DNA from: a virus
Length of the DNA: 22,464 nucleotides
Direction: 5' to 3' (one strand)
IMG/VR virus record: IMGVR_UViG_3300015371_000200
Location: 1 to 22,464 of that record
Part shown: piece after piece, positions 1 to 22,464 of the stretch
How the letters are laid out: the number at the start of each line of letters is the position of its first letter
How positions within the stretch are numbered: position 1 is the stretch's first letter
Notes under the pieces: generated by a model
The model's database searches: none
What the model was told of the DNA's origin: nothing
The model's input: only the letters and a program-made list of their open reading frames with translations
Made by a program: the position numbers and the translations under genes

Positions 1-271
1 CCTTCCACGAGCAGCCGTTGACGATGTCGCCCTTGCCGAACCCCAGGTAGAGGCCGTTCCACAGGCACCACGAGCCGAAGCCTGAGCAGTCGGCGTAGTG
101 GGGGTACTGGCCCTTGCGGGCGTTGAGCCTCGAGCGGATGCCCTCCCAGCGCCGGCCGCCCTGCGTGTAGTGGACGGCGCCCTTGTGGGTGTAGGCCAGC
201 CACGCCGCGCCGACAACGCGGTCGCGGCAGCGGATACGCTGAGTCTTGTTCAGGCCGGAGTAGCTGCTCAT
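1..271 (-). CDS. NlpC/P60-like peptidase, partial (3' end missing)
   Basis: The first 90 codons are visible; the gene continues beyond position 1. It starts at ATG 271 in an ATGA overlap. The product begins SSYSGLNKTQRIRCRDRVVG, has a helix with AAWLAYTHKGAVHYTQGGRRWEGI, and reaches the catalytic-Cys motif HYADCSGFGSWCLWNGLYLGFG. DCSGF followed by a hydrophobic helix is the NlpC/P60 signature, and the preceding RWEGI region is like actinophage lysins. The His and third polar residue would be further along, outside the window. It probably cleaves peptidoglycan crosslinks as an endolysin partner of the M15 enzyme. The signature is clear; the full domain plan cannot be seen. Confidence 0.8.
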   Translation of the reverse strand, partial: MSSYSGLNKTQRIRCRDRVVGAAWLAYTHKGAVHYTQGGRRWEGIRSRLNARKGQYPHYADCSGFGSWCLWNGLYLGFGKGDIVNGCSWK

Positions 272-429
272 TGCGGGACGGGCTCCTCGTAGGTGCCGGA
301 GTCGCCCTCGTCCTCCCCCTCGTAGACGTCGGGCTCCGCGGGGTCGTCCTCGTCCTCCGCGTCAGCGCGGTCCGCCTCGAGCTCGCCTGGCTCGAGGTCG
401 TCGTCTGCCGGCTGCTCCTGCTCGCTCAC
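268..429 (-). CDS. hyperacidic 53-aa protein
   Basis: This GTG-started frame (429) is a GTGA overlap with the preceding acidic gene and ends in an ATGA overlap with the NlpC/P60-like gene. Its 53 residues contain 24 acidic residues and one Arg (SEQEQPADDDLEPGELEADR... then GEDEGDSGTYEEPVPQ). It shares only bulk acidity with its neighbour, not a clear alignment. Coupling at both ends argues it is translated. The function is unknown; proximity to two wall hydrolases suggests a role in lysis or enzyme restraint, which is inference. Confidence 0.6.
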   Translation of the reverse strand: MSEQEQPADDDLEPGELEADRADAEDEDDPAEPDVYEGEDEGDSGTYEEPVPQ

Positions 430-602
430 GGCGTCTCCTCTCCGTCGTCCTCCTCGCCCGTCAGGTCATCGTCGGCCAGCGGGGCCTCCTCGTCGTCGGT
501 GTCGTCGTCGAAGGCGGCGTCCGGCTCGTCGGCCAGGTCGTCGTTGTCGGCGTCCGGGGGCGGGTGCTCCTCCTCCGGCGGCAGGTTCGGGTCTTCGGTC
601 AT
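426..602 (-). CDS. hyperacidic 58-aa protein
   Basis: The product MTEDPNLPPEEEHPPPDADN... contains 28 Asp/Glu in 58 residues and no Lys or Arg. It has proline-rich flanks and clusters such as DDDTDDEE and GEEDDGEE. It starts at ATG 602 in a TGATG overlap with the peptidase stop and ends in GTGA with the next acidic gene. It is too polar for a holin and has no membrane segment. Acidic disordered proteins can neutralise basic partners (such as the basic peptidase tail) or mimic DNA; neither is shown. A longer in-frame extension up to 923 is rejected because it runs through the peptidase gene. Confidence 0.65.
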   Translation of the reverse strand: MTEDPNLPPEEEHPPPDADNDDLADEPDAAFDDDTDDEEAPLADDDLTGEEDDGEETP

Positions 603-1288
603 CACGTCTCCCCCAACAGGGTCTTGATGTAGTCGGCGCGCTGCTTGCGGTTGTTCTTGCCCCACCCGTCCTTCTGGGCCGCCTCGCGGATCTCCCGCAA
701 CTGGGAGCGCAGGCGCGCCTTCGCCCTCGAGGCCCGCCTCAGATGCGAGTCGTCGACCTTCGCCCAGCCGCCGTTGCGCTTCGCGACCCGCCGCTCCTTC
801 ACCAGCGTGTCGCGCGCGGCCTTCTCGCTGTCGGAGAGGTAGCGCCGCGGGTGCGGCTTCGGCTTCGCCTTCGGGCTCTCCCCGCGGTGGCGGTCGCGGT
901 CGGGGTTGTAGGTCGTATGCCACGCCTCGCTGGGCGCGTCCGTCCAGGGCCCGCCGCCCCGGATGCCCCAGCCGTACTCGCTGCCGTACTTGCGGACGGC
1001 GGCCTGCATCGCCGGCGTCGGCAGGTCGACGGCGATGCCCCAGCCGTGGTTGCTCGTCCCAGGGACGGCGGCGAGAGCTCCGCGCCCGGAGCGGTAGAGG
1101 TTCCAGAAGTAGTTCTGGTCGGCGATGGGCCGGTAGGCGGTGCGCCTCGAGGTCGGGCAGATCCAGACGCCCGTCTCCTTCCCGATGCGCTGGCGCATCC
1201 TCAGCCAGGAGGCCGCGGCGTCCTTGCGGAGCCGGCCGCCAGGGATGTCGGCCAGGTCAGAAGCGGGGAGCCTGCCGTTGGCGGCCAT
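602..1288 (-). CDS. VanY/M15-type peptidase (endolysin component)
   Basis: This 228-aa protein contains the M15 zinc peptidase signature SNHGWGIAVD (residues 79-88; ligands His81 and Asp88) and the second ligand motif SEAWHTTY (Glu121, His124). These enzymes cut stem peptides or crosslinks of peptidoglycan (D-Ala-D-Ala carboxypeptidase or L-Ala-D-Glu endopeptidase). An N-terminal segment (RLPASDLADIPGGRLRKDAAASWLRM) precedes it. The last 90 residues are very basic (PKAKPKPHPRR, KERRVAKRNGG, RASRAKARLRSQLREIREAAQ) and may bind the wall or teichoic acids. No signal peptide is seen, so release would need a holin not in this window. Start ATG 1288 overlaps as TGATG. It is most likely the lysis enzyme, although a virion role is possible. 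Confidence 0.9.
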   Translation of the reverse strand: MAANGRLPASDLADIPGGRLRKDAAASWLRMRQRIGKETGVWICPTSRRTAYRPIADQNYFWNLYRSGRGALAAVPGTSNHGWGIAVDLPTPAMQAAVRKYGSEYGWGIRGGGPWTDAPSEAWHTTYNPDRDRHRGESPKAKPKPHPRRYLSDSEKAARDTLVKERRVAKRNGGWAKVDDSHLRRASRAKARLRSQLREIREAAQKDGWGKNNRKQRADYIKTLLGET

Positions 1289-1683
1289 CAGGGAGTCGGC
1301 TCCTGCGCGAGGAGCGCCTCGAGTTGGCTGACCAGCGTCGTGCGGTCCTGGCCGACGCGCTCCGCATCGAGAGCGGCCTGAGCGCGGACCCGGTCGTCGC
1401 CGACCCAGTCCATGACCTCTTGCACGGTGCCTTCGGGCGGCGCCCCCGCCGACTGCTCAGGCGGCGGCTCCGCGAGCTCCGACGGGGCGGGCGGCGCTAC
1501 CGGCGGCGCCGGCGGCTCCTCCCCCTTGATCGCGCCGCCCTCAACGACGCCGCTGGCGACCTGCTCCGTGATGCTGGCGCTGATCGACGCGCCCTCCGGG
1601 AAGGCGGTCTTGTCGACGAAGGCCTGGACCTCCTCCCGGGAGCCGGCGGTGTAGTTGATGCTGATGAAGGCCTGGACGGGCAT
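1288..1683 (-). CDS. hypothetical 131-aa protein, proline-rich linker
   Basis: The N-terminal 45 residues form a small beta-alpha-beta pattern (MPVQAFISINYTAGSREEVQAFVDKTAFPEGASISASITEQVAS). The middle is a proline/glutamate-rich linker (EEPPAPPVAPPAPSELAEPPPEQ). The C-terminal part (VQEVMDWVGDDRVRAQAALDAERVGQDRTTLVSQLEALL) is a helical motif that resembles small proteins in actinophages and reminds me of helix-turn-helix-like hairpins, without a named function. The stop and the next start overlap as TGATG. ATG 1683 has AGGAG about nine bases upstream. It stands between the fibre and the peptidase, so a structural or lysis-related role is possible. I do not recognise it. Confidence 0.65.
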   Translation of the reverse strand: MPVQAFISINYTAGSREEVQAFVDKTAFPEGASISASITEQVASGVVEGGAIKGEEPPAPPVAPPAPSELAEPPPEQSAGAPPEGTVQEVMDWVGDDRVRAQAALDAERVGQDRTTLVSQLEALLAQEPTP

Positions 1684-1686
1684 TGC

Positions 1687-2364: not shown

Positions 2365-2373
2365 TGACTCGAG

Positions 2374-2381
2374 CTCCTCCT
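2374..2381 (-). promoter_or_regulatory. ribosome binding site of the collar fibre gene
   Basis: AGGAGGAG on the minus strand begins in the TAG stop of the preceding gene and lies nine bases before ATG 2364. A CTCGAG palindrome separates it from the start codon. Confidence 0.7.
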
Positions 2382-3015
2382 ATGGCTTCGGGCCCTCAGA
2401 GAGGACGCGGTAGGTGGCGTAGCGGGCGGGCAGGGCGGAGTAGAGGCCCTCGTCGATGGTCATCTGCTGGTAGTCCCAGCCGGGGACCTGGCGGACGGTC
2501 AGGGTGATGCCGACAGGCTTCGCGGCGGTCAGGGCGGCGAGGAGCAGCGCGGGGTCGGGCGTCTCCCCCGTCAGCGTGACGACCTCGAGCGTGTAGGCGG
2601 GGTCCGTCCCGGAGGCGTCGCGCTCGCGGAAGTACATCGTCTTGGTGCCCGTCAGGTAGAGGCTGGCGATGGCGCGCATCCGGCCGGTCGTCCCGCTCTC
2701 CCAGTTCGGGGCGTCGCGCATCAGGTCGCGGGACTGCTCCTCGCTCAGCCCCGGCCCCAGCGCGAGCCCGACGATCTGGGCCGCCCAGGGGAGCGCCCAG
2801 GCCGGCGCGTTGTACGTCATCAGCACGCCGACGGGGTAGTGCGGCTCGTCGGGGTCGAAGCCCTCCTCGAGCTCGACCCCTGCGTTGAGCAGCGCCTCGC
2901 AGAGGATGGAGTAGGCCCAGCCGCGGAGCTCCTCGCCCTCGCCCAGCGGGAGCGCGCGCTCGCGCAGGCGGCCGGCCAGCTTCGTGAGCTCGAACGGGGG
3001 GTCGGGCGGCGGCAT
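2380..3015 (-). CDS. tail protein I-like baseplate protein
   Basis: This 211-aa protein follows J directly (TGATG overlap at 3015), the place of P2 gpI that connects wedge and fibre. Matching features are the N-terminal helical region (FELTKLAGRLRERALPLGEGEELRGWAYSILCEALLNAG), LEEGFDPDEPHYPVGVLMTYNAPAWALPWAAQIVGLALGPGL, then MRAIASLYLTGTKTMYFRERD and PVGITLTVRQVPGWDYQQM, ending LPARYATYRVLSEGPKP. The longer upstream frame is rejected because it runs through J. The PAWALPWAAQIVGL strand-helix motif is like the family; confidence is moderate to high from order plus motif. Confidence 0.75.
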   Translation of the reverse strand: MPPPDPPFELTKLAGRLRERALPLGEGEELRGWAYSILCEALLNAGVELEEGFDPDEPHYPVGVLMTYNAPAWALPWAAQIVGLALGPGLSEEQSRDLMRDAPNWESGTTGRMRAIASLYLTGTKTMYFRERDASGTDPAYTLEVVTLTGETPDPALLLAALTAAKPVGITLTVRQVPGWDYQQMTIDEGLYSALPARYATYRVLSEGPKP

Positions 3016-4253
3016 CAGGGGGCCACCCCTGCGAAGTCGATGGCGCCGGCGAGCGGGAGCGGGGCGTCGCCGGTGAGGGGAACGTCGGCTGTCCCGAACG
3101 AGCCACCGGCCTTGCGGATCTGGATGTCCGAGACGTAGTGGACGCCCAGGCCGCGGTTCGCCCAGTCGACCGCCTCGTAGAGGCGCGCCACGGTGTTCTG
3201 CGCCCACGTAGGCTCCCGCGCCTGCGGGTCCTGGCCCCAGGAGGCGGGGTCGAGCCACTGGCGGACGCTGTCCTCCGCGGCGGCGGCGACGGTCGCGGGG
3301 TCGTGGCCGGGGTAGGCCACGACCGTGCCCTGGACGTCGATGGTCGTGTACTCAGGGGCCATCGCGTAGGAGAGCGTGTTGACCTCGCGCGCCTCGACCA
3401 TCGCCTCGTAGACGCGCTGCAGGAGCGAGGGGTCAGGCGGCGCCCCGCCCTCCGCCGTCACGGCCAGCGTCGTCGCCCGCGGGACGTTCGTCTGCGCCGC
3501 CGGCGTGGCCGCCCCGGAGTCGCCGACGGCCGTCGGGGGGTTGGCCGTGAACTTGCCGCTCGCCGGCACGTAGAGGTCCAAGACGAGGACGCGGCCGACG
3601 CCCGGGACCTGGCGGCCGACGATGCCGAAGTCGCGGGCCGTGATCGCCCTGGGGGCCATGATGACGAGGAGGTCTGAGAGCCGGTCGAGGTAGGCGTCCT
3701 GGTCCTCCTCCTCCACGCCGCCCTGCGCCGGCGCGAGCTCGACGGCATCGACGCCCGCGAGCTCCGTGACGAGGTTGGCCGTGCCGGAGCCAGAGTCCCC
3801 GAACGCGCCGTTGGCGGCCTCGCCGGGCACCAGGGCCTCTACGGGGACGGCGAGGGCCTGGGCCGCGCCCGTGGAGGTCACCGGCTCGTCGCGGGTTGTG
3901 CCGAAGACGACGGCCTCGCCGGAGGGGCTCTCCGCCGTGATCTGCGTGCCCTGCGGGATGGTCATCGCGGGGGCGTCGGCGGAGACGGTGAACGTCGCCG
4001 TGGAGACGGCGGGGATGGCGGGGCGGATGGGGATGCCGAAGATCGTCTCGCCCATCTCCGCGAAGACCGCCGGCGGGACGAGGCTGACCTGGTCTACGAC
4101 CTCCGCGAGCATCTGGGCGACGCCCTCGATGAGGATGGTCTCGATGTTCCCGGGCCGCGGCTCCCAGCCGGGGATCTGCGTGCGGAGGTAGTTCTGGCCG
4201 ATGTTCGCCAGGCTGTCAAAGTCGCCGGTGAGCTCGAGCTCGAGGTACGGCAC
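3015..4253 (-). CDS. baseplate J-like protein
   Basis: This 412-aa baseplate wedge protein belongs to the Baseplate_J family. The N-terminus has FDSLANIGQNYLRTQIPGWEPRPGNIETILIEGVAQMLAEVVD, then FGIPIRPAIPAVSTATFTV and IPQGTQITAES, VEALVPGEAANGAFGDSGSG. The hallmark stretch GGVEEEDQDAYLDRLSDLLVIMAPRAITARDFGIVGRQVPGVGRVLVLD sits in the middle. A C-terminal part with ARLYEAVDWANRGLGVHYVSDI follows. Start GTG 4253 has GGGAGG about ten bases upstream. It joins gp25 and gpI in the wedge that opens to trigger contraction. The stop overlaps the next ATG as TGATG. Confidence 0.92.
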   Translation of the reverse strand: MPYLELELTGDFDSLANIGQNYLRTQIPGWEPRPGNIETILIEGVAQMLAEVVDQVSLVPPAVFAEMGETIFGIPIRPAIPAVSTATFTVSADAPAMTIPQGTQITAESPSGEAVVFGTTRDEPVTSTGAAQALAVPVEALVPGEAANGAFGDSGSGTANLVTELAGVDAVELAPAQGGVEEEDQDAYLDRLSDLLVIMAPRAITARDFGIVGRQVPGVGRVLVLDLYVPASGKFTANPPTAVGDSGAATPAAQTNVPRATTLAVTAEGGAPPDPSLLQRVYEAMVEAREVNTLSYAMAPEYTTIDVQGTVVAYPGHDPATVAAAAEDSVRQWLDPASWGQDPQAREPTWAQNTVARLYEAVDWANRGLGVHYVSDIQIRKAGGSFGTADVPLTGDAPLPLAGAIDFAGVAP

Positions 4254-10566: not shown

Positions 10567-11345
10567 CGCTTGCGCTTCCCCGTCTTGCGGGCCTTGCGCG
10601 AGCTCGCGGCCGGCAGCGGCGCCCTCAGCTTCGTCCCCGGCTTCAGCGCGCGGTTGGCGAGCAGCGCCACGTCCTTGTTGGCGTCGCGGAGCTCCGTCCA
10701 CTTGATGTGCAGGCGCCGCGCGATCTGCGCCGGCGTCTCCCCCTTGCCGCCCTTCAGGCGCTTGACCGTCACGAGCCGCGTCCGCGACTTGGCGCCCACG
10801 AGGGCGTTGCGCTTCGTGCTCTCCCACTCCGGCGGGACGTACTCGAGCAGCGCCAGCGTGAGCGCCTGGCGGACGCGCTTGTTGTCGGTCTCCCGGCGGA
10901 TGCCGTCGCCGGGCTCGATGCCCGTGATCACCCACTCGTCGGCGGGCAGGCCCGGCACGCCGCTGATGCGCACGCTGCCGGGCTCCGTCTCGCGGCCCCT
11001 CGCGACGTCGTAGAGCGTCGCGATCTGCCCCTCCACGTCGCGGTTCTCCGCGAAGCCGTCGAGGAGCAGCGGCAGCGAGAGCGTGTACGGGGCGTTGCCC
11101 TTCCAGGTCGTCATCGCCACCTGCTGAGGGCGGTCCGTCACATCCCAGCCGCCCAGGCCCTCCCCGACCTCCGGCTCGTCGGCGCCCAGGCGCGCGAGGA
11201 GCCGCATCGGCGGGTTGTCGGCCTCGAGGCCCACCCAGCCGGCCGGGACCGTCATCGCGGCCTCGCGGGGCCTCCGCTTGCTGGTCGAGACTGGGTGGGT
11301 GCTCGCCGGCGCCCTCCGCCCCCAGGCGGGCCCGAAGGGCGGCAT
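10563..11345 (-). CDS. LysM-containing baseplate/tail protein (gp53-like)
   Basis: This 260-aa protein lies between the tape measure and the hub, where contractile phages encode the LysM protein that links tube and baseplate. The central region (residues 68-172) is a beta-rich fold with TTWKGNAPYTLSLPLLLDGF and VRISGVPGLPADEWVITGIEPGDG. Residues about 191-243 are a LysM-type domain (RLVTVKRLKGGKGETPAQIARRLHI, then WTELRDANKD and LKPGTKLRAP), followed by a very basic tail (SSRKARKTGKRKR). Start ATG 11345 forms a TGATG with the tape measure stop; an internal ATG at residue 31 (MTVPAGWVGLEADNPP) is an alternative. The LysM here probably serves tube or baseplate binding rather than cell wall attachment. 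Confidence 0.82.
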   Translation of the reverse strand: MPPFGPAWGRRAPASTHPVSTSKRRPREAAMTVPAGWVGLEADNPPMRLLARLGADEPEVGEGLGGWDVTDRPQQVAMTTWKGNAPYTLSLPLLLDGFAENRDVEGQIATLYDVARGRETEPGSVRISGVPGLPADEWVITGIEPGDGIRRETDNKRVRQALTLALLEYVPPEWESTKRNALVGAKSRTRLVTVKRLKGGKGETPAQIARRLHIKWTELRDANKDVALLANRALKPGTKLRAPLPAASSRKARKTGKRKR

Positions 11346-12958
11346 CAGCGGCCCCTCCGCGCGCGCTGGTCAGCGGTGTCCTGTGCCGTTGCGCGAGCGA
11401 TCTCCCGGCCGTTGAGGTACACCGGGACTACGATCTGGCCCCGGCCCGGGCCCGCGCCCGCCGGGCTCAAGCGCGGGAGCGATGAGCTCGAGAGCGGCGT
11501 GATGCGGGTGCCGGGCCGGAACGTTGCGAGCTCCGGGCCCCGCTCTCCCACTAGCTGGACGCGCTGGTGGGGGAGCACGGTCCCGCCGTGCTGGAACCCG
11601 AAGACCTTCTTGACCGCCCCGCCGACCTTGCCCCCAGGAACGAGGCTCTTGATCGCGTCGAGGATCGCCCCCGGGGCGCTCTTGATGCCGTTGACGAGGG
11701 CGTCGACGATGCCCTTGCCCAGGCTCTTGAACCCCTCCACGAGGCTCCTCGCCCGGCTGACGACAGAGCGGAACGCGCTCGAGACGGCGTTGCGGATGAC
11801 GGAGGCGAGGTGCGCGAGCGTCCGGGCGACGCCGGCGGCGGCGCTGGCGACGCGCCCGATGATCGGGATGACGACCTTGAGGCCGGCGATCAGGCCGCGG
11901 ATCGCGTAGCCGACGACGCGGATCTGGATGGCCGCGTAGCGCAGGACGACGACCAGGGTGGCGCCCAGGACGATCGCCAGGACCCGCAGGACGGGGACGA
12001 GGTAGTGGGCGTTCTGGATGATCGGGCGGATCGCCCAGACGAACTGGCGCGCGTAGTTCGCCGCCGCCGCGAAGATCGGCTGCAGCGCCTTCAGCGCCGA
12101 CCCGATGGCCTTCGCGCCCTGGCCGCCCCTGCCGAAGAAGGGGCCCAGCTTGAGCAGGAGCCTCGAGAGCCCCTCGACGGCCGGCATCAGGAGCTTCCCG
12201 ACGCTCTCCTGCAAGTTGCCGAACGCCACCTTCAGCTTGTCGGCGCTCGTAGCCTGCGCCTCCGCGGAGCCCCCGAACTCCTTGTTGAGCTCGCGGAGGA
12301 TGACGCCCTGCGCCTTCGCCATCTGGTTGTGCTTGACGTAGCCGGCGATCTGCTTCTTCTGGGCGGCATCGAACGTGACGCCGACGCGGGCGAGCGCGCT
12401 CACGCCCTTGATCGGGTCGTTCAGCGCCTTCCCCAACTGGATCGCCTGCTTCTGGGGGTCGGTGCCCAGCGCCGCCGTCATGTCGACGAGCGTCTTGGTC
12501 GCCTGGTTGAACACCTTCGGCCCCTTGCCCGCCTCGTTGCGGACCTTGGTGAACGTGAGCAGCATGTTCTCGCCGGTCTGGATCGTCTCGTCGTCGATGC
12601 CCGTCTTGTTCGACAGCGAGGGAGCGAGGTTGCCGACCTGCCCGGCGGTCACGTTCGCGCTGCTGCCCGTGCTCCTGATGACCGCGCTGGTCTGCTGGCC
12701 GATCTTGTAGCTCTCCCGGAAGGCCTTGACGGCATCGACGCCGAACTTGGCCGCCATCAGCCCGCCGCCCACCGCGGCGCCGGCGGCGAGCGGCGCGAGC
12801 TTGCCCATCGTCTTGCCCAGCTTGCCCGTAGGGGCGTCCGCCTTCTTGCCGGCGTCCCCGATGCCGCTGATGCTCGAGGCGGCCCCTCGAGCCTGCGCCT
12901 GGAACTGCGTCGCGCCGGCGAGGCGGAGCTCGATGATGATGGCCTCGTTGGCGGCCAC
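11345..12958 (-). CDS. tail tape measure protein
   Basis: The tape measure fixes tail length and is ejected ahead of DNA. This one is 537 aa, short for a tailed phage, which predicts a short tail. It starts with an EAIIIELRLAGATQFQAQARG dimer-like region, continues with an alpha-helical body (residues 70-300) with FGNLQESVGKLLMPAVEGL, and has two hydrophobic stretches at about 319-339 and 351-372 that may insert in the host membrane. The C-terminal FQHGGTVLP...LVGERGPELATFRPGTRITP pattern (455-487) is a hallmark of tape measures in phages of Gram-positive hosts. The start GTG 12958 abuts the previous TAG. No hydrolase domain is present here; those are on the hub. The stop overlaps the next start as TGATG. 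Confidence 0.93.
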   Translation of the reverse strand: MAANEAIIIELRLAGATQFQAQARGAASSISGIGDAGKKADAPTGKLGKTMGKLAPLAAGAAVGGGLMAAKFGVDAVKAFRESYKIGQQTSAVIRSTGSSANVTAGQVGNLAPSLSNKTGIDDETIQTGENMLLTFTKVRNEAGKGPKVFNQATKTLVDMTAALGTDPQKQAIQLGKALNDPIKGVSALARVGVTFDAAQKKQIAGYVKHNQMAKAQGVILRELNKEFGGSAEAQATSADKLKVAFGNLQESVGKLLMPAVEGLSRLLLKLGPFFGRGGQGAKAIGSALKALQPIFAAAANYARQFVWAIRPIIQNAHYLVPVLRVLAIVLGATLVVVLRYAAIQIRVVGYAIRGLIAGLKVVIPIIGRVASAAAGVARTLAHLASVIRNAVSSAFRSVVSRARSLVEGFKSLGKGIVDALVNGIKSAPGAILDAIKSLVPGGKVGGAVKKVFGFQHGGTVLPHQRVQLVGERGPELATFRPGTRITPLSSSSLPRLSPAGAGPGRGQIVVPVYLNGREIARATAQDTADQRARRGR

Positions 12959-13144
12959 CTAGCCCCTCCTGACGGCCTGCGCGTAGGCGTTGACGACCTC
13001 GACGGCCTGGGCCTTGATGAACCGGCGCTGGTGCTCGATGGCCTCCGGGATGGCGGCGAGCAGGAACTCGCGCTCGATGGGGCCGGCGCGGAGGAGGCTC
13101 GAGGGGTCGATGCCGACTGAGGCGGCCACGCCCAGGACCCTCAC
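12959..13144 (-). CDS. tail assembly chaperone second frame (GT-like extension)
   Basis: This 61-codon frame follows the chaperone in the -1 frame and overlaps it as GTGA, ending with TAG directly abutting the tape measure start. The product includes GVAASVGIDPSSLLRAGPIEREFLLAAIPEAIEHQRRF and a final helix, mostly alpha-helical, resembling the T domain that recruits the tape measure in G/GT systems. It can be made either as an extension of the chaperone by -1 frameshifting at 13165-13159 or as a separate protein from the GTG by coupling. Small size, missing Shine-Dalgarno and position favour frameshifting. The assignment is inference from a well-known arrangement in long-tailed phages. Confidence 0.65.
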   Translation of the reverse strand: MRVLGVAASVGIDPSSLLRAGPIEREFLLAAIPEAIEHQRRFIKAQAVEVVNAYAQAVRRG

Positions 13145-13653
13145 CCAGCCGCCGGCGCTTCCCCCAGGCCCGGCACCTCCACAGGCTGGCGCATCCAGTC
13201 GAGGAGCCTCGAGGCGTGGGCATCGATGGCAAGGGCGTTGTTGCCGAACAGGCGCAGGATGACGTCCCTGGCCGTCGGCTCGTAGCCCTCCGGGTAGGGG
13301 ATCTCGAGGAGCGCCGCCAGGGCGGCATCCAGGCGGACGCGCCGGCCGTCGAGCTCGAGCTCCTCCCCCTCGCGGTCGAGGAGGCAGACGCAGGCCTGCG
13401 CCATCAGGTCCATCGAGGAGTCGGTGCTCGAGATGTCCGCGAGCTCGCCGCCCTTGTCGATGACCCGCGCGCGCTTCGCCACGTAGCGGTCCATCTGCTC
13501 AGGGCCCAGGGGGCGGTAGCGGACGAACAGGAGGCCGGCGAACGCCCCGCCGACGGGGAGCTCGAGGGTCTGCTCCTCCTGCTGCGCCGCCGCGGCGCGC
13601 TGTAGCTGGGCCAGGAGCGAGCCGGCCGCGCCCTCGACCTCGAGCTCGCTCAT
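13141..13653 (-). CDS. tail assembly chaperone (gpG-like)
   Basis: This 170-aa protein lies between tube and tape measure, the conserved slot for the assembly chaperone that coats the tape measure until tube polymerises. It begins MSELEVEGAAGSLLAQLQRAAAAQQEEQTLELPVGG and has a compact alpha/beta body with RYRPLGPEQMDRYVAKRARV, an acidic region with DLMAQACVCLLDREGEELELDG, and a helical end with ARDVILRLFGNNALAIDAHASRLLDWM. Start ATG 13653 is in an ATGA overlap; the in-frame ATG further up (13680) lies inside the tube gene and is unlikely. The 3' end carries the candidate slippery run described separately. The role is known for lambda G and its relatives; the identity here rests on order and the two-frame arrangement. 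Confidence 0.75.
   Translation of the reverse strand: MSELEVEGAAGSLLAQLQRAAAAQQEEQTLELPVGGAFAGLLFVRYRPLGPEQMDRYVAKRARVIDKGGELADISSTDSSMDLMAQACVCLLDREGEELELDGRRVRLDAALAALLEIPYPEGYEPTARDVILRLFGNNALAIDAHASRLLDWMRQPVEVPGLGEAPAAG
13159..13165 (-). promoter_or_regulatory. candidate -1 frameshift site GGGGGAA
   Basis: Seven bases GGGGGAA lie seven codons before the chaperone stop. The zero frame reads CTG GGG GAA, so it is not a strict X-XXY-YYZ heptamer, but tRNA re-pairing on the G run is possible. The -1 frame is open from here through the following 61-codon gene without a stop, so a slip would give a 231-aa fused product. Confidence 0.5.
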
Positions 13654-14096
13654 AGCGCCACGATGCTGACGATGGTGCACTCGATCTCGACCAGGGCGGC
13701 GTCGTTGCCGCTCGAGTCATGGTCGGGGGCCTGCACCGACTTGAGCGTCCCTGTAGCCGTGAGCGGGTTGCCGCGGGCGTTGCCGTCGATGTCGAGGAAC
13801 TGCTGACCGATGACGATGCTCCCCTTGCCGCGGCGGTCGATGAGGTAGCCCAGGGAGGGCGCGTCGCGCCCCCAGTCGAACTCCCTCGAGAGCGTGATGT
13901 TCTCGTGCGTCTGGCGGCCCCCCAGGGAGACCTCCTTCGCCATCCCGCCCGGGTTGTACTTCTGCTCCTCGCTGTCGGCGTTGCCGCCGGTCTTTTTGTC
14001 CCATACACCGAAGTCGACGTCGTCGACGCGGAGCGTGACGAGCATCGTGTCCTCGCGCGTAGGGCGCGAGAGGGGCTGGTTGAACGGGCCTGCCAT
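13650..14096 (-). CDS. tail tube protein
   Basis: This 148-aa protein sits directly after the sheath, where contractile phages encode the tube. It begins AGPFNQPLSRPTREDTMLVTLRVDDVDFGVWDKKTGG and has beta-strand-rich segments throughout, with the loop KYNPGGMAKEVSLGGRQTHENITLSREFDWGRDAP characteristic of tube proteins of this order (a loop that packs against neighbouring subunits), and ends with short strands VEIECTIVSIVAL. A longer upstream frame exists, but ATG 14096 has AGGAGG four bases in front and gives the normal length. The tube forms the inner channel for DNA passage; the tape measure sets its length. The stop overlaps the chaperone start as ATGA. Confidence 0.9.
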   Translation of the reverse strand: MAGPFNQPLSRPTREDTMLVTLRVDDVDFGVWDKKTGGNADSEEQKYNPGGMAKEVSLGGRQTHENITLSREFDWGRDAPSLGYLIDRRGKGSIVIGQQFLDIDGNARGNPLTATGTLKSVQAPDHDSSGNDAALVEIECTIVSIVAL

Positions 14097-14106: not shown

Positions 14107-14107
14107 C

Positions 14108-15523
14108 TCAGACCGCCCGGTCGAGCGGCACCTTGGTGATCGGGATGTCGACCCACTCCGCGACCTTGCTGGTCTTGACGCGGATCGTCGCGATCACGGT
14201 GCCGGCCGCGGCGTCCTTGATCGTGTTCGCGGAGGCGACCTCAACGCGGAACGCATCCCCAGGCGTCGCCCCGTAGAGGGCGTCCATGTCGTAGTACCTC
14301 GAGCAGATGCCGATGAGGTCCTTCGCCAGCTTGGAGTAGAGGTGCCCGCGCCCGTCGATGGGGTCGAAGAGGTACGTCTGGGCCGCGACGTCCGCCTCGT
14401 GCGCGATTGCCATCACGACGCGGCTCTCCCCGAAGAACATCCAGTTCGTCTCCGGGCCCGCCGCCGCCGTCCGGTAGCCGTACGTCTCGATGTCGCCGTA
14501 GACGACTTTGCCCAGGTTGATGCCCTGGGCGTTCATCGCCTCGTGGTCGGCGTCGCTCCACTCGTAGAGGAGGCCCAGGCTCGAGGCATGGACGGAGCGG
14601 TCGCCGGCCGCGCTGACCGCCGGGTTCCCGCCGGCGTCGACGCGGGCGATGATGCCGGCCTCGATGGCGCTGTAGGGGACCAGGGTCGTCGCCGGCGCGA
14701 CCTCCGCCGGGTAGCTGACCCAGGGAGCGAATAGCGCCGCGTAGCGGCTCTCCTTCGTCGGCTGGATCGCCTCGATGGCCGCCTCGAGCTCCGTCCTCGA
14801 GCCCGTGTTCGGGGGGTCGAGGAGCGCGACGCGGTGGTGGGAGCCGGAGTGCGCGCAGAGCGCCTGATGGACGGCCGGCGCGCTGAGGCCGGGCGCGAGG
14901 ACCTGGCCCGGGCCCAACTGGTAGCCGAACGCGTCGAGGGCGGCCCCGACGGAGGCCTCGTCGACGGTCTCGTCGTTGACGCCTCCTGCCAGCGAAACCG
15001 TCGCCGGCGGGGCGGGGACAGGGTCGGTAGCCACGGCGGCCGTCAGACGCACGTACTGGCTGTAGCGCGAGGCCCATGAGGCGGCGTCGCCCTCCGTCAA
15101 GACGGCGGGGGAGCGCTCGAGCTCCGTGCTCCCGTCGCTGACCTTGATGACGGCGGAGCCGGCGGGGCTCCCGCTGGGCGGCGCGATGCTGTCGACCTTG
15201 ATCGTGTTCGCCCAGTCGCCGGGCGAGCTCGCGTCGGCGGTCATCGCCCCGAACGCGCCCGTCGCCGCCTCCGCGGCCGGGCCGCTGATGCGGTTGACGT
15301 AGAGGCTCGACCCGCCCTCCATGAAGTAGGCCATCACGGAGTCCTTGAGGACGCTCGCGGCCTCCCCGAACTGCGTCTTGAAGTCGCTGAGGGAGAGGAC
15401 GCGCGTCGCGCCGACCGGCCCCCTGTCCGACAGCCCCACCATGTAGGCCTGCCCGGTGTCGAGAGGAGCGGCTCCTCTGGTGGTGTCCTCCTCGATGTGA
15501 ACGGTCACGCCGGGCCTGGGCAC
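14108..15523 (-). CDS. contractile tail sheath protein
   Basis: The sheath polymerises around the tail tube and contracts to drive it through the host envelope. The 471-aa length and sequence are typical: an N-terminal PGVTVHIEEDTTRGAAPLDTGQ arm, then YMVGLSDRGPVGATRVLSLSDFKTQFGEA and a domain ending LKDSVMAYFMEGGSSLYVNRISG, a variable insertion, and the conserved C-terminal part with AGIIARVDAGGNPAVSAAG, YGDIETYGYRT, NWMFFGESRVVMAIAHEADV and a final strand region RVKTSKVAEWVDIPI that donates to neighbours. The start is GTG 15523, chosen for the perfect Shine-Dalgarno in front. This gene defines the phage as a myovirus. It is followed 11 bases later by the tube gene. Confidence 0.95.
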   Translation of the reverse strand: MPRPGVTVHIEEDTTRGAAPLDTGQAYMVGLSDRGPVGATRVLSLSDFKTQFGEAASVLKDSVMAYFMEGGSSLYVNRISGPAAEAATGAFGAMTADASSPGDWANTIKVDSIAPPSGSPAGSAVIKVSDGSTELERSPAVLTEGDAASWASRYSQYVRLTAAVATDPVPAPPATVSLAGGVNDETVDEASVGAALDAFGYQLGPGQVLAPGLSAPAVHQALCAHSGSHHRVALLDPPNTGSRTELEAAIEAIQPTKESRYAALFAPWVSYPAEVAPATTLVPYSAIEAGIIARVDAGGNPAVSAAGDRSVHASSLGLLYEWSDADHEAMNAQGINLGKVVYGDIETYGYRTAAAGPETNWMFFGESRVVMAIAHEADVAAQTYLFDPIDGRGHLYSKLAKDLIGICSRYYDMDALYGATPGDAFRVEVASANTIKDAAAGTVIATIRVKTSKVAEWVDIPITKVPLDRAV

Positions 15524-17261: not shown

Positions 17262-17264
17262 GAG

Positions 17265-17275
17265 CTCCTCCTCCT
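17265..17275 (-). promoter_or_regulatory. strong ribosome binding site fused to the capsid stop codon
   Basis: AGGAGGAGGAG on the minus strand precedes the GTG of the neck gene by three bases from its end. Its first bases are the AG of the capsid TAG stop, so termination of capsid translation delivers ribosomes straight onto the next initiation site. Confidence 0.7.
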
Positions 17276-18297: not shown

Positions 18298-18834
18298 CTA
18301 CCGCGCGGGGTAGCCCGCTGCTCCGCGTATCGCGTTGTTGATCTCGTCGTTCGGAGCCGCCGTCGGGGGCGGCGCTGAGCGGCTACGCGCCCCGCCGTCC
18401 GTGGGCGGCGAGGGCTGGGGTGCTGTCGAGAAGTAGCCGGGGGAGTCCTGGGCGAGCGCGGCGATGGCCTCCGCCGCCCCCTTGACCTGGTCGTCCTCGA
18501 GGCGCACGGAGCTCTGGTCGATGAGCCGGACGATGTGGTCGGGCCGCTTCGCCCCGGCCTTGACCGCCTCCGTGATGAGCGCGCTCTCCACGCGCGTCTT
18601 GCCGACGATGGGCTCGAGCTCCCCTACGCGCGCCTTGAGTTGGTCGCGTTCCGCGACGACAGGCTCGAGCTCGCCTACGCGCGCCCGGAGCGTGTCGCGC
18701 TCGCCGTTGGCGGCATCGAGCTTCTCCTGCATCTCGCGGCGCTGGCGGGCCACGATCTGGTCCACTTCCGCCTGAGAGAACGTGCGAGGGGGGTCTGCGC
18801 TCGAGGAGGCCGGAGCCGGGGGGTCTGCGCCCAT
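18298..18834 (-). CDS. capsid scaffolding protein
   Basis: This 178-aa protein lies between portal and major capsid, where phages encode the internal scaffold that shapes the procapsid. Residues 18-80 are a strongly charged coiled coil. Within it an eight-residue unit ARVGELEP occurs twice (51-58 and 68-75), 17 residues apart, reflecting a small internal duplication. A helical middle, a Pro/Ser-rich linker (139-161) and a short C-terminal helix (NDEINNAIRGAAGY) follow; scaffolds commonly use such a terminal helix to bind capsid protein. The N-terminus holds ADPP twice, encoded by a 13-base direct repeat. The ATG start has no clear Shine-Dalgarno site despite a 6-base gap after the portal stop, so re-initiation after the portal gene is likely. 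No protease motif is present. Confidence 0.8.
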   Translation of the reverse strand: MGADPPAPASSSADPPRTFSQAEVDQIVARQRREMQEKLDAANGERDTLRARVGELEPVVAERDQLKARVGELEPIVGKTRVESALITEAVKAGAKRPDHIVRLIDQSSVRLEDDQVKGAAEAIAALAQDSPGYFSTAPQPSPPTDGGARSRSAPPPTAAPNDEINNAIRGAAGYPAR

Positions 18835-18840: not shown

Positions 18841-20382
18841 TTACGCTACCGCGGGAGGCGGGGGCTCCGCAACGGGAGGCAGTCCACTCTCCCCCGGCGG
18901 GAGTCCTGGCGGCGCCCCCGCGGAGGGGTCGCCCGGCGCCGGGCCCGCCGGCTTCCCGACGGTCAGGCCGTGCGCGCGCGCCTCGTCGATGGCCGCCCAG
19001 AACGTCGCGATCTGCTCCGGCGAGTAGCCGTAGTCCTCCCAGAGTTGCTGTGGCGGCACGCCCAGGGTCAGGCGCTTGACCAGGGAGTCCGCGAGCGCCG
19101 CCTCGCTCCGCCGGCCGCCCGCCGTCCAGTCGACGCCGATCTGCGGGCCCTTGACCGAGATGCCCTCGATGCGAGCGGCCAGCGCCATCGCGCGGCTGAT
19201 GCCCGGGGCCGTGCTCCTCTGCTTCCCCGTGACCTTGTCGGTCATCCCCGTCTCCGCGGCATCCAGGCTCTCTCCCGAAGGCCAGTTGCCGGAGCCGCTC
19301 ATCAAGATGTGCGGCGGGATGCGGCTCCTCGAGGCGATGCTCCTGATGTGCCAGTCGAGCGCCTGGATGTAGTTCGCCAGGTCGGTCGGGCTGAACTCCC
19401 CGAAGGCCCCGTCGGCCTTCGGGTTGACCCAGACGCGCTCGACGGCGGCGCGGAAGGGCTGGATCGCCTGGCCGGTGTCGGGGTCCTTCGGCACCTCGAG
19501 GCCTGTTGCCCAGCGCTGGCGGAACGCCGCGAACTCCCCGCTGACCAGCATGTTCGTGAGTAGCTGGTCGATGGCGTCCTGCGTCGAGATGAAGTCCGCG
19601 ATGTCGGAGCGGCCCAGGCCGACGGGGACGTCCGGGGCGTTGTGGGGCGGGATGAGCAGCGCCAGCGGCGGGCGCGCCGGGAGCAGTTGAGGGTCGTTCA
19701 GGAGCACGCCGACAGGGACCTCCCCCAGGGCGTTCTCCTCGTCGGGGAGGCTCTCGTCCTCGCGCTGCATCAGCCACGGGTCCCGCGAGCGCTTGCTGCG
19801 CCGATGGATCGTCTGCTCCGTCCAGAGCGTCACGTAGAGGGCGCCGGCGTCCTCATCCCACCACGCCTTGAGGGCCGCCAGGAGCCGCCGGCGATCTGCG
19901 GGGTCGCGGAGGACGATGAACTGGCGGGGGTGCTCGACGGTGATGCGCGCGCGCGGCGTGCCGGCATCGAGGTAGGGCTGGACGAGGAGGTACGCCTCCC
20001 CTTGCTGCGCCGCCGCCCCGAACCCCAGGCCAGAGTCGAGCTCGAGGCCCTCCCGCCGCCAGAGGTCGAGCAACTGCTTGTCGGCGCGCTCAGAGCCGCC
20101 GCCCTTGAGCGCCTGCACCTCGAGGCGCTGAGTCGCGCTCTGGACGATCAGGGAGCACCAGTTGTCGCTCATCCCCGCCAGCATCGCGCCGAACGCCCGG
20201 CGGTACTGGCTCGAGACGAACGCGAGGGCGTGGCGGCCCTCGATGTAATCCGTGTAGAGGTCGCAGAGCGGCGCGCGCTCCTGCAGGCGGGCCAGGAGCC
20301 GGGCCATCAGGAGTTCCGGGCCCGTAGCGTCCGTGGGAGCCGCGAGCTCGACCCAGTCGTCGGTGGGAGAGAGGAGAGTCAC
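18841..20382 (-). CDS. portal protein (SPP1 gp6-like family)
   Basis: The portal is the dodecameric ring through which DNA enters the head; it binds terminase on the outside and the neck proteins after filling. The 513-aa length and gene position, directly after the large terminase, fit the SPP1 gp6/Phage_prot_Gp6 family. Supporting stretches include the N-terminal helix-rich part with LYTDYIEGRHALAF, the wing region with EHPRQFIVLRDPADRR, and the stem/crown segment DIADFISTQDAIDQLLTNML followed by SIASRSRIPPHILMSGSGNWPSGESLDAAE. The last 40 or so residues are a Pro/Gly/Ala-rich tail, probably disordered. The start is GTG at 20382 with AAGGGGG upstream. The stop is TAA, six bases before the scaffold start. 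The call is strong on family pattern and context. Confidence 0.92.
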   Translation of the reverse strand: MTLLSPTDDWVELAAPTDATGPELLMARLLARLQERAPLCDLYTDYIEGRHALAFVSSQYRRAFGAMLAGMSDNWCSLIVQSATQRLEVQALKGGGSERADKQLLDLWRREGLELDSGLGFGAAAQQGEAYLLVQPYLDAGTPRARITVEHPRQFIVLRDPADRRRLLAALKAWWDEDAGALYVTLWTEQTIHRRSKRSRDPWLMQREDESLPDEENALGEVPVGVLLNDPQLLPARPPLALLIPPHNAPDVPVGLGRSDIADFISTQDAIDQLLTNMLVSGEFAAFRQRWATGLEVPKDPDTGQAIQPFRAAVERVWVNPKADGAFGEFSPTDLANYIQALDWHIRSIASRSRIPPHILMSGSGNWPSGESLDAAETGMTDKVTGKQRSTAPGISRAMALAARIEGISVKGPQIGVDWTAGGRRSEAALADSLVKRLTLGVPPQQLWEDYGYSPEQIATFWAAIDEARAHGLTVGKPAGPAPGDPSAGAPPGLPPGESGLPPVAEPPPPAVA

Positions 20383-20486
20383 GACCGATGCCCCCTTGCG
20401 ACTTGCCAGGCGATGCGCAGGCTCGCGCCGGCCTGGCGCTCAGCCCGCCAGCACTGCGTGCAGAAGTAGGGCCGCCGCCGTCTCAC
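20379..20486 (-). CDS. 35-aa CxxC mini-protein between terminase and portal
   Basis: This tiny frame starts with GTG in a GTGA overlap with the terminase stop and ends with TGA in a GTGA overlap with the portal start. It exactly fills what would otherwise be a 100-base gap in a genome with almost no gaps. The product begins with four arginines, followed by PYFCTQCWRAERQ and ends ARGHRS. Cys9 and Cys12 form one CxxC knuckle, and His33 could be a further ligand, so a small metal-binding or zinc-ribbon-like fold is possible but incomplete. Its strong basic character would suit nucleic acid or portal/terminase contact. It may alternatively be a translated spacer that keeps ribosomes moving into the portal gene. 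No homology is claimed. Confidence 0.6.
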   Translation of the reverse strand: MRRRRPYFCTQCWRAERQAGASLRIAWQVARGHRS

Positions 20487-21910
20487 GAGAACGTGTAGAG
20501 CCTCCCGGGCCGGTCGTCTGAGCTCAGCGCGTCGCACCGCGCCTCGTAGGCCAGCACGGCGGCGACGGCCAGGTCGATCTTGTTCGGGCTCATCGGCGTG
20601 TCCTTGACGAGGAAGTAGCCTCCTCGCGCCTCGCGCATCCTCGCGTTCATCACCGCCCTGGTCAACCGGGGGTCGCCGTTGTGGCCGGCCTCGCCGGCGA
20701 GCAGGTCCGTCCGGAAGCGCTCCACGGCCGCCAGCATCGGCGTCCGCGCCGTGTGGAACGGCGTGACGGCGGGCTGCCCGTACTCGAGGCCCCAGCGGTC
20801 GATGTCCGACTGCCAGAGCGGAGGGTCGAAGTAGCCGCGGACGACGCGGTAGCGGTTCATCGCGTCCTCGACAGCGGCGTCGACCTCGCCGGCCGGCACC
20901 TCCCAGGAGCCGTCGCGGTGGTGGCCCTCCGGGGCCGCCCACTCCGCCAGCGGGACGAGCAGGGCGTCGTCGAGCCGGCAGGCGCAGAGCGCCGTGCTGT
21001 CGCCCGTCCTCGAGCCGTCGAAGCCCAGGGCGATACGCTCGTGGGGGAGCAGGCCGCCGACGCGGGCTCCCATCGCCCACTCCTCCGCTCTCAGCCACCA
21101 GTCGTCCGTCGCCTGCCAGATGCCGCACGCGAACCGCGCCCACTGCGCAGGGAGCATCGAGGGCGACTCGTAGCGCCGGCGCAGAGCCTCCTCCGTCTGC
21201 CACGACGCGGGGTTCGCCAGCTTGACGATGCGCATGTCGGAGCGGTCGTCCTCGCGGTCCAGCGCCCACTCGTGGAGGACGAACCCGCCGTTCGGGCTCC
21301 TCGCGACGGTGTGGCGGCCCTCCCGGCGGGTCCCCTCGAGCGTGTGCGCTGCAGCGCGCATCTCGCCCAGCGCCCCCGCCTCGCTGTCGCCGGCGGTGCT
21401 GATCGTGAGCATCTGGCCCCCTCGAGGGCCCAGTCCGTCGCGGAAGACGCCGTAGAGGGAGAGCGACTTGTGGCGGTGGAGCTCATCGACGAGCGCCAGC
21501 GTCGGGATGACGCCATCGGCCGTGTCGACATCGGCCGCGAGGACGCGGATGCGCCCGTTGCCGCGGATGGCGCGCACCATCCGGTAGCCGCGCTGCACCT
21601 TGACGTGCCGCTGCAGCGCCGGGGAGCGATCCACGAAGCCGGCGGCCTGCTCGTAGAGGATCGTCGCCTGATCCCGGCTCGCCGCGGCGATCAGGCACTC
21701 CGCATCGGCCGTCACCAGCAAGTGGTAGAGCGCCAGGGCCGCCATCAGCGTCGACTTGCCGTTCTTCTTCGGCAAGATCGCGAGCGTCTCCTGGCAGCCC
21801 TCGAAGTACGCGCCCAGGAGCTCTTCCTGGAAGGGCTCGAGGCGCATCGGGCGCCCCGACTCGAGCTCAAGGCGCGAACAGAAGCCGGCGAAGTCCTCGA
21901 GCTCGCTCAT
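20483..21910 (-). CDS. terL: terminase large subunit
   Basis: This is the ATP-driven DNA packaging motor and nuclease, 475 aa, a usual length for the HK97-like (Terminase_1) family. The N-terminal ATPase shows a Walker A-like motif LPKKNGKST (residues 46-54, Lys52), a Walker B strand TLALVDELH with Asp142-Glu143, and a coupling motif ISTAGD (170-175). The C-terminal RNase H-like nuclease shows GFDGSRTGDSTA (Asp298), YFDPP (Asp362) and NKIDLAVAAVLAYEA (Asp446), the expected acidic metal-binding triad. It acts at the portal vertex during head filling, with TerS selecting the DNA. The ATG start at 21910 overlaps the previous stop as ATGA, and the gene ends in GTGA with the 35-aa gene. The call is secure. 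Confidence 0.96.
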   Translation of the reverse strand: MSELEDFAGFCSRLELESGRPMRLEPFQEELLGAYFEGCQETLAILPKKNGKSTLMAALALYHLLVTADAECLIAAASRDQATILYEQAAGFVDRSPALQRHVKVQRGYRMVRAIRGNGRIRVLAADVDTADGVIPTLALVDELHRHKSLSLYGVFRDGLGPRGGQMLTISTAGDSEAGALGEMRAAAHTLEGTRREGRHTVARSPNGGFVLHEWALDREDDRSDMRIVKLANPASWQTEEALRRRYESPSMLPAQWARFACGIWQATDDWWLRAEEWAMGARVGGLLPHERIALGFDGSRTGDSTALCACRLDDALLVPLAEWAAPEGHHRDGSWEVPAGEVDAAVEDAMNRYRVVRGYFDPPLWQSDIDRWGLEYGQPAVTPFHTARTPMLAAVERFRTDLLAGEAGHNGDPRLTRAVMNARMREARGGYFLVKDTPMSPNKIDLAVAAVLAYEARCDALSSDDRPGRLYTFS

Positions 21911-22095
21911 AGGTCCGCCAGCGCGCGGTTCAACCCCTCATCGAGCGCGGCGCCGGCCGCCAGGAGCCCCAGAAGCGGCACCAGGACGACTCCATGCTCG
22001 AGCTCGAGCCGCAACCACCAAACCGACGGCTCCTCGTGCACAACCACCACGCCCACGATGCCCGGCCAGACGTAAGGCTCCTCCACGCCGCTCAC
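21907..22095 (-). CDS. hypothetical 62-aa protein between terminase subunits
   Basis: I do not recognise this protein. It starts at GTG 22095 inside a GTGA overlap with the upstream gene and ends in an ATGA overlap with the large terminase, so it is locked into the operon by coupling at both ends. The sequence alternates hydrophobic and tryptophan-rich stretches (YVWPGIVGVVVVHEE, then PSVWWLRLELEHGVVLVPLLGLLAAGAAL) and ends in a short amphipathic helix. The pattern looks more like a small beta-rich domain plus a helix than a clear transmembrane protein, although residues 34-50 are quite hydrophobic. Its place suggests an accessory packaging or DNA-binding role, but nothing in the sequence proves it. 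Confidence 0.7.
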   Translation of the reverse strand: MSGVEEPYVWPGIVGVVVVHEEPSVWWLRLELEHGVVLVPLLGLLAAGAALDEGLNRALADL

Positions 22096-22400
22096 CGGCG
22101 CTGGCGCTTCGCCGCGAGCTCGTCATCCGGGTCAGAACCCGCCGGCGGCGCCGTCTGCCCCGCCGCCGTCATCCTGGCGTACTGGATCACCGCGCTCGTC
22201 TTGCCCGCGCGCGCATCCTGCGCCAGAAGCCGCATCGCCTCCTCCGCCGGCGACTCGTTCTCCGGGGCATCGCGCCGAAGGCCCCGCTCGAGCGCCTGAC
22301 GGGCCCCCTCAGCGAAGGACAGACCATCCAGAGCCACGCGGGCGCGCAGATCCGCCAGAAGAGCCCCCGGAACCGCCACAGACAGCCTCTCCATCGCCAC
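22092..22400 (-). CDS. ribbon-helix-helix DNA-binding protein, probable terminase small subunit
   Basis: This is a 102-aa protein. Residues 4-42 have the Arc/CopG-like ribbon-helix-helix pattern: a strand with alternating residues (RLSVAVP), then helix LLADLRARV, a turn at DGLS, and helix FAEGARQALERGL. The C-terminal half (GKTSAVIQYARMTAAG, then DPDDELAAKR and a basic end) resembles the helical ends of actinophage small terminases that contact the large subunit. Position directly ahead of the large terminase also fits TerS, which recognises the packaging site on DNA. The start is GTG at 22400; an in-frame ATG two codons later (22394) is an equal alternative, and neither has a strong Shine-Dalgarno site. 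It ends in a GTGA overlap with the next gene. It could instead be a stand-alone transcriptional regulator. The DNA-binding fold is fairly sure; TerS identity is inferred from context. Confidence 0.6.
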   Translation of the reverse strand: MAMERLSVAVPGALLADLRARVALDGLSFAEGARQALERGLRRDAPENESPAEEAMRLLAQDARAGKTSAVIQYARMTAAGQTAPPAGSDPDDELAAKRQRR

Positions 22401-22434
22401 GCACGCCAGCCTAGCGCTCCCAGACGCCCGATTT

Positions 22435-22448
22435 GCCGCTTTTGCGGC
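22435..22448. promoter_or_regulatory. inverted repeat upstream of the first gene
   Basis: A 5-bp inverted repeat (GCCGC, 4-base AT-only loop, GCGGC) lies about 35 bases upstream of the ribbon-helix-helix/TerS candidate gene. Read on the plus strand it also contains two near-identical octamers, TTTGCCGC and TTTGCGGC. It is one of very few A/T tracts in the window. It could be an operator for the ribbon-helix-helix protein, part of a packaging (cos/pac) site, or a weak hairpin. No T-run follows on the minus strand, so it does not look like a terminator for transcription in that direction. I see no convincing -35/-10 promoter in the 64 bases available. The function is inference. Confidence 0.35.
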
Positions 22449-22464
22449 TTCCTTCGCGCGGGAG

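What the first reader, a model, noticed from the sequence alone, without database searches (positions are those of the whole stretch)
1..22464. Strong excess of the palindromes CTCGAG (about 80) and GAGCTC (about 70)
By eye I count about 81 CTCGAG and about 70 GAGCTC. At about 70% GC with independent bases, roughly 7-8 of each would be expected. GTCGAC, with the same composition, occurs about 25-30 times, and GGATCC is rare. Favoured Leu CTC and Glu GAG codons explain part of this. However, many CTCGAG copies sit in a different frame, as TCG-AGC (Ser-Ser) or TCG-AGG (Ser-Arg), using the AGG codon expected to be rare at this GC. Examples are the terminase GSRTGDS, sheath CSRYY, tape measure ASSIS and chaperone HASRLL. 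At least one copy uses CGA (Ala-Arg-Gly in the tape measure). GAGCTC likewise also occurs as GGA-GCT-C. Phages usually avoid palindromes because of restriction. This looks like a HIP1-type iterated palindrome, a host-matched methylation or partition motif, or a mutational context bias.
Basis: partly seen in the sequence, partly recalled or inferred. Interest (0 to 1): 0.75.

Follow-up and report, generated by a model that had tools for sequence, protein, structure and literature searches.

The report
Phage DNA vocabulary bent by word avoidance
This soil phage really carries about ten times more CTCGAG and GAGCTC than base composition predicts, but most of that follows from its codon habits plus a near-total ban on a few similar-looking words (such as GAGCTG, CTGGAG and CCGAG), the mark of a phage evading DNA-cutting defences, with only a modest unexplained remainder.

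Summary
The counts are right: CTCGAG 81, GAGCTC 71, GTCGAC 27, GGATCC 1. The excess survives synonymous-codon shuffles (78 vs 33; 69 vs 34 inside genes). An unbiased word scan shows what goes with it: near-absence of neighbouring asymmetric words, GAGCTG/CAGCTC 0 vs ~36, CTGGAG/CTCCAG 1 vs ~30, CCGAG/CTCGG 8 vs ~95. Holding the depleted words at observed counts reproduces the in-frame copies, leaving 51-60 of 78 CTCGAG and 53-60 of 69 GAGCTC explained; adding tetranucleotide context explains 67 and 64. The remainder lies out of frame (TCG-AGG, CT-CGA-G, GGA-GCT-C) and is hexamer-specific: rare codons appear where they complete the palindrome. One sister phage shares excess and bans; another shares two bans but not the excess; many 60%-identical relatives have neither word. 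About 770 sampled genomes around the likely host group never reach the phage's density. Spacing is random; methyltransferase genes do not track the excess. Verdict: mainly a by-product of restriction-type word avoidance; a weak HIP-like drive is not excluded.

The parts
1..22464 (.). 81 CTCGAG and 71 GAGCTC dispersed over the whole window at random spacing (gap CV 0.94 and 1.06; random 0.98)
1..22464 (.). Near-absence of asymmetric words: GAGCTG/CAGCTC 0, CTGGAG/CTCCAG 1, CCGAG/CTCGG 8; also CAGCTG 0 and CGATCG 1
20483..21910 (-). Terminase large subunit; out-of-frame CTCGAG at 21009 (GGC-TCG-AGG) and 21421 (CCT-CGA-GGG)
   Evidence: phrog_9 E 4.6e-81; sites
18841..20382 (-). Portal protein; out-of-frame CTCGAG at 19328 and 20210
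   Evidence: phrog_104 E 4.8e-88
14108..15508 (-). Contractile tail sheath; out-of-frame CTCGAG at 14298, 14580, 14796 and GAGCTC at 15225
   Evidence: phrog_23 E 3.6e-38
11345..12958 (-). Tape measure protein; out-of-frame CTCGAG at 11487, 11778, 12162, 12873, 12886 (GCT-CGA-GGG)
   Evidence: phrog_27166 E 1.2e-23
13141..13653 (-).
   Evidence: gene model; sites
1075..1080 (-). GAGCTC formed by two rare codons, GGA-GCT-C; others at 1848, 5445, 5990, 7777
   Evidence: 5 observed vs 0.1 expected
2368..2376 (.). Overlapping CTCGAG/GAGCTC in a short intergenic gap; other copies not fully inside a gene at 17262, 18240, 18800

Best explanation
A contractile-tailed soil phage, probably infecting Thermoleophilia/Solirubrobacterales-like actinobacteria, has purged a set of short, mostly asymmetric words (GAGCTG/CAGCTC, CTGGAG/CTCCAG, CCGAG/CTCGG, plus CAGCTG and CGATCG), most likely because defence systems of its hosts recognise them. 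At 72% GC the preferred synonymous escapes from these words are CTC-GAG for Leu-Glu, GAG-CTC for Glu-Leu, TCG-AGC for Ser-Ser after C, and AGC-TCN after G. CTCGAG and GAGCTC therefore pile up as sinks, on top of a codon-context preference (C before GA) shared with actinobacterial chromosomes. Shown: the counts, the depletions, the forced rare codons, the constrained-null decomposition, and the lineage-specific switching among relatives. Inferred: that the depletions reflect restriction or restriction-like defence, and the host identity. Not fully explained: a hexamer-specific out-of-frame remainder.
For: Depletions GAGCTG/CAGCTC 0, CTGGAG/CTCCAG 1, CCGAG/CTCGG 8 against ~36, ~30 and ~95. Gln-Leu uses CAG-CTC or CAG-CTG 0 times in 17 although CTC and CTG are 93% of Leu codons; it is written CAG-TTG, CAG-CTA, CAA-CTC. 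Leu-Glu is CTC-GAG 50/53 with no CTG-GAG; Glu-Leu is GAG-CTC 52/54 with no GAG-CTG. With 20 depleted words held at observed counts the sampler gives in-frame CTCGAG 46.5 vs 50 and GAGCTC 49.1 vs 52; with split codon boxes totals are 60 vs 78 and 60 vs 69; with tetranucleotides 67 and 64. Across relatives in which the palindrome itself is not banned, GAGCTC excess tracks CAGCTC depletion (rho -0.64, n=25, p=6e-4) and CTCGAG excess tracks CTCCAG depletion (rho -0.49, n=21, p=0.024). Sampled hosts show the C|GA preference (CTC-GAG in 256/286 Leu-Glu of G038) but use GAG-CTG freely.
Against: Out-of-frame CTCGAG is 28 against 4.6 (codon boxes free), 12.4 (split) or 19.7 (split plus tetranucleotides; this model may absorb real signal). 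Copies built from two rare codons (GCT-CGA-G, GGA-GCT-C) are not obvious escapes from any banned word: in G002, Arg after NCT is CGA 7/7 when G follows and 0/12 otherwise. The correlations use 21-25 related phages without phylogenetic correction and several words were tried; CTCGAG-CTCCAG is only nominally significant, and GAGCTC also correlates with CTCCAG (rho -0.46). A published survey finds little avoidance of asymmetric Type I/IIG/III sites (PMC6286503), so the inferred cause is unusual. No cognate defence system was identified.
Confidence: 0.66

Rival explanations
1. HIP-type iterated palindromes: CTCGAG and GAGCTC are positively accumulated in the phage by selection or by methylation-linked biased repair, as proposed for alternate HIPs in cyanobacteria.
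For: Excess in all three frames including rare-codon pairs; CTCGAG frame 2 is the top word-frame combination of the genome in the window (26/2.8) and in sister G002 (31/3.3); hexamer-level codon dependence; out-of-frame CTCGAG excess also in L104, L114, L087, L119.
Against: Most copies are explained without it. Methyltransferase genes do not track the excess: amino-MTase matches, mostly weak, in records G003, L087, L119, L117, L124; C5-MTase genes only in records without the CTCGAG excess. Elhai's model needs MutS/MutL-type repair, which actinobacteria generally lack (own knowledge). Intergenic data too small (418 bp, 3 vs 0.6-0.8).
Confidence: 0.2
2. Host-matched composition: the phage simply mirrors a host genome rich in CTCGAG and GAGCTC.
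For: Thermoleophilia genomes are rich in both words, up to 2.8 and 2.7 per kb (G326); the CTC-GAG preference is shared.
Against: Phage density 3.6 and 3.2 per kb; CTCGAGG 1.6 per kb vs a maximum of about 0.93 in 399 class members. Hosts do not deplete GAGCTG or CCGAG and show little out-of-frame excess. Sister G003 lacks the excess.
Confidence: 0.08
3. Mutational or codon-pair context bias unrelated to defence.
For: Tetranucleotide context absorbs part of the excess.
Against: Words at 0 or 1 against 30-215 expected, on both strands and in all frames, present as a ban in one phage and absent as a ban in its relatives, are too sharp and too labile for a mutation bias.
Confidence: 0.05

Closest known systems
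Restriction-site avoidance in phages (Rusinov et al. 2018, PMC6286503)
   Same: Near-complete elimination of short words from dsDNA phage genomes, sharply lineage-specific; in this clade many palindromes are at 0 against 10-80 expected.
   Different: In the window and its sisters the most strongly banned words are asymmetric (GAGCTG, CTGGAG, CCGAG), whereas that survey reports no avoidance for Type I/IIG sites and very rare avoidance for Type III; here the bans also push palindromes into excess.
HIP1 and alternate HIPs of cyanobacteria (Elhai 2015, PMC4390886)
   Same: A GC-rich palindrome in excess beyond codon usage in all reading frames; different lineages favour different palindromes.
   Different: Found in phages not chromosomes; density 3.6 per kb rather than about 1 per kb; no cognate methyltransferase found; most copies explained by word avoidance.
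Codon-pair context bias of GC-rich actinobacteria (C before GA)
   Same: CTC-GAG is favoured over CTG-GAG in sampled hosts.
   Different: Does not explain GAGCTC, the GAGCTG and CCGAG bans, or the out-of-frame copies.

Membership tests
Restriction-site avoidance | Specific words nearly absent on both strands and in all frames against a protein- and codon-preserving expectation | tested here: met
Restriction-site avoidance | Avoidance forces otherwise rare synonymous codons | tested here: met
   Gln-Leu 0/17 with the two dominant Leu codons after CAG
Restriction-site avoidance | Set of avoided words differs between relatives | tested here: met
   G003 bans GGCGCC (0/83) and not CTGGAG; G007 bans CTCGAG and GAGCTC but keeps GAGCTG
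Restriction-site avoidance | Host carries a restriction or similar system with the avoided specificity | not testable with these tools
   host unknown; nearest chromosomal relative is a Solirubrobacteraceae MAG at 50% TerL identity
HIP-type iterated palindrome | Palindrome in excess beyond codon usage in every frame | tested here: met
   residual shrinks to 11 and 5 copies under the fullest model
HIP-type iterated palindrome | Excess in non-coding DNA | tested here: inconclusive
   3 vs 0.6-0.8 in 418 bp; G002 CTCGAG 4 vs 1.0-1.4, GAGCTC 1 vs 1.1
HIP-type iterated palindrome | Cognate methyltransferase present | tested here: inconclusive
   G002 has only a sub-threshold N6_N4 match; no tracking across records; the window is a fragment
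HIP-type iterated palindrome | Shared with the host chromosome | tested here: inconclusive
   no sampled genome reaches the phage density, but the true host is unknown
Partition or orientation motif | Regular spacing, clustering or strand bias | tested here: not met
   random gaps; palindromes have no orientation

The most novel reading that the evidence does not exclude
Besides the avoidance by-product there is a genuine positive drive for CTCGAG (and GAGCTC, GCCGGC) in some phages of this soil clade, strong enough to recruit rare codons in tandem and independent of the host chromosome: a phage-borne, HIP-like iterated palindrome whose sign flips from favoured to completely banned between relatives, perhaps because the modified site is protective in one host and cleaved in another.
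Probability: 0.25. Interest if true: 0.72.

Novelty: new variant of a known kind. Interest (0 to 1): 0.45.

Why it matters
It shows that an apparent iterated palindrome can arise mainly as the shadow of words that are missing, and gives a way to test that (hold depleted words at their counts and look again). It points to strict avoidance of asymmetric words, which a large survey found rare or absent, in a clade of soil phages whose banned vocabularies could serve as a read-out of the defence systems of uncultured hosts.

Tried and rejected
Host-matched HIP: no sampled genome at phage density. Partition or spacing motif: random gaps. Cytosine deamination of CCGAG to TCGAG: GTCGAG is not raised as CTCGAG is, and relatives have TCC-CGC or TCG-CGC rather than CCG-AG at these sites. 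Quasi-palindrome correction or a general rise of all permitted palindromes: permitted palindromes are only slightly above non-palindromes and the difference does not track how many are banned. One-step sink from Ser-Gly or Pro-Arg: relatives rarely have these residues at the sites. Methyltransferase link: no tracking. Maximal-order Markov (64.9 vs 81) was set aside because its 5-mers contain the signal; the tetranucleotide model has a milder form of the same problem. First plus-strand gene models gave no family hits because the genes are on the minus strand. Portal search of genome contigs found no relative; the baseplate search of viral contigs none.
Full report
What the window is. The 22,464 bases are a virus record with contractile-tail phage genes, all on the minus strand: terminase 20483-21910, portal 18841-20382, scaffold near 18298-18765, sheath 14108-15508, tail tube 13650-14096, tape measure 11345-12958, fibre 6740-8440, baseplate 3015-4253. 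A gene caller trained on these covers 97.7% of the window. Known phages match the portal only at about 30-34% identity. Relatives are IMG/VR metagenome contigs (soil, from memory of the accession ranges; not checked); the closest chromosomal relative is a Solirubrobacteraceae MAG at 50% terminase identity. The host is therefore only a guess.

Observation. CTCGAG 81, GAGCTC 71, GTCGAC 27, GGATCC 1. Shuffles that keep proteins and codon usage give 33.0+-3.8 and 34.0+-3.5 against 78 and 69 in genes. CTCGAG as TCG-AGC/AGG is 26 against 3, GAGCTC out of frame 17 against 3.6.

The missing words. An unbiased scan of all 4- to 8-mers against the same shuffles shows that the depletions are as striking as the excesses: CCGAG 2 and CTCGG 6 against 44.5 and 50.3, GAGCTG 0 against 21, CAGCTC 0 against 14, CTGGAG 0 against 20, CTCCAG 1 against 11, CGATCG 1 against 21. 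The main ones apart from CGATCG and CAGCTG are asymmetric, and several are one letter away from CTCGAG or GAGCTC. The bans force rare codons: Gln-Leu never uses CAG-CTC or CAG-CTG in the window, and in sister G003 it is CAG-CTA 16 of 24 times. In G002 the ban is exactly GAGCTG/CAGCTC, since GAGCTC (157) and CAGCTG (13) are present.

Relatives as a natural experiment. Sister G002 (structural core proteins 75-87% identical, the baseplate and fibre region 44-49%) shares both excesses and the three bans (CTCGAG 175/94, GAGCTC 144/82). Sister G003 (terminase 84%) shares the GAGCTG and CCGAG bans, but CTGGAG is allowed (55/43) and CTCGAG is depleted (21/54). Relatives at about 60% identity such as G005 and G007 have no CTCGAG or GAGCTC at all. 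Among non-redundant relatives in which the palindrome is not banned, GAGCTC excess follows CAGCTC depletion (rho -0.64, p 6e-4) and CTCGAG excess follows CTCCAG depletion (rho -0.49, p 0.024); nine neighbour or control words were tried per palindrome, relatedness was not corrected for, and GAGCTC also correlates with CTCCAG.

How much is explained. A Monte Carlo sampler over synonymous codons, with the 20 most depleted words held at their observed counts, gives CTCGAG in frame 46.5 (observed 50) and GAGCTC 49.1 (52): the in-frame excess disappears. Out of frame it gives 4.6 (28) and 3.5 (17). In that last model CTCGAG is the top residual of all hexamers in the window (GCCGGC has the same z, 4.1), while GAGCTC ranks 14th. 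The last model uses tetranucleotides that partly contain the signal, so it gives a lower bound on the remainder; the free-box model gives an upper bound. The split-box model conditions on where AGC and AGG codons are, which may itself be part of the signal.

The remainder. It is hexamer-level. Ser-Arg after C is TCG-AGG 11 of 23 times, after other bases 0 of 13. TCG followed by AG is preceded by C 26 of 28 times, other TCG 42 of 80 (p 8e-5). In G002 the rare CGA codon follows NCT 7/7 times when G comes next and 0/12 otherwise; in the window Ala after NGA is GCT 5/7 when C comes next and 0/8 otherwise; sampled hosts and relatives with mild word bias show no such dependence. These contrasts are conditional on the first rare codon, which may itself be present because of the palindrome; they show word-level preference, not its cause. 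Sites turn over quickly: of ten frame-2 CTCGAG sites with conserved residues between the window and G002, three keep the word. Nothing regular in their placement was found.

Host comparison. In samples of 151 genomes of the Solirubrobacteraceae MAG's order, 396 of its phylum and 399 of its class (overlapping, about 770 distinct), CTCGAG peaks at about 2.8 per kb and CTCGAGG at about 0.93 per kb, against 3.6 and 1.6 in the window. Stretches from fifteen of these genomes (two chosen for low counts) show that those rich in CTCGAG mostly exceed shuffles in frame (about 1.2-1.7x) through the C|GA context, use GAG-CTG freely and do not deplete CCGAG. Genome sizes in these tables are rounded, so densities are approximate.

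Mechanism. Restriction-type avoidance is the best-supported cause of the bans because they are near-absolute, symmetric between strands, frame-independent and switch between relatives. That the enzymes exist is inference: no host or defence gene was identified. Asymmetric 5-6 bp words would suit Type III, Type IIG or BREX-like systems (own knowledge); a published survey found such sites rarely or not avoided (PMC6286503), which makes the pattern unusual if the inference holds. The HIP comparison rests on PMC4390886: its defining links, a cognate methyltransferase and sharing with the chromosome, were not found and could not be excluded here.

Noticed in passing
L059-L130 and window (clade of terminase relatives): Many relatives have several to ten GC-rich palindromic hexamers at or near zero against 5-80 expected, in phage-specific combinations; the clade looks like a natural archive of defence specificities.
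   Followed up: partly
L017:17551-18748 (G003 contig about 37,551-38,748): Cytosine-5 DNA methyltransferase gene in sister phage G003 (PF00145 E 3.7e-40), with the N-terminal match and the downstream called gene in different pieces, perhaps a frameshift or a wrong gene call; no such match in G002.
   Followed up: partly
L014:3788-4879 minus: 363-aa protein of G002 with a sub-threshold N6_N4 methylase match and a 62%-identical homologue in G003; the order of the matched motifs looks permuted.
   Followed up: no
L014:15371-19114 minus: G002 gene trio: RecT, PD-(D/E)XK nuclease, and a protein matching aspartyl/asparaginyl beta-hydroxylase, with homologues in G003.
   Followed up: no
window, seven genes (e.g. 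17274-18200, 18841-20382): TCGATGCC occurs 8 times on the coding strand against 0.6 expected, always as Asp-Ala with the rare GAT codon.
   Followed up: partly
window 4591-5478 and 5478-6422: Two adjacent genes with similar starts and the same minor-tail family matches, apparently tandem duplicates.
   Followed up: no
window 175-267 and 17425-17517: Two predicted tRNAs on the plus strand inside minus-strand genes, probably false positives.
   Followed up: no
window and G002 (L014, L015): GCCGGC is also in excess (87 vs 51; 171 vs 94) and is the strongest residual in G002 under the fullest model.
   Followed up: partly
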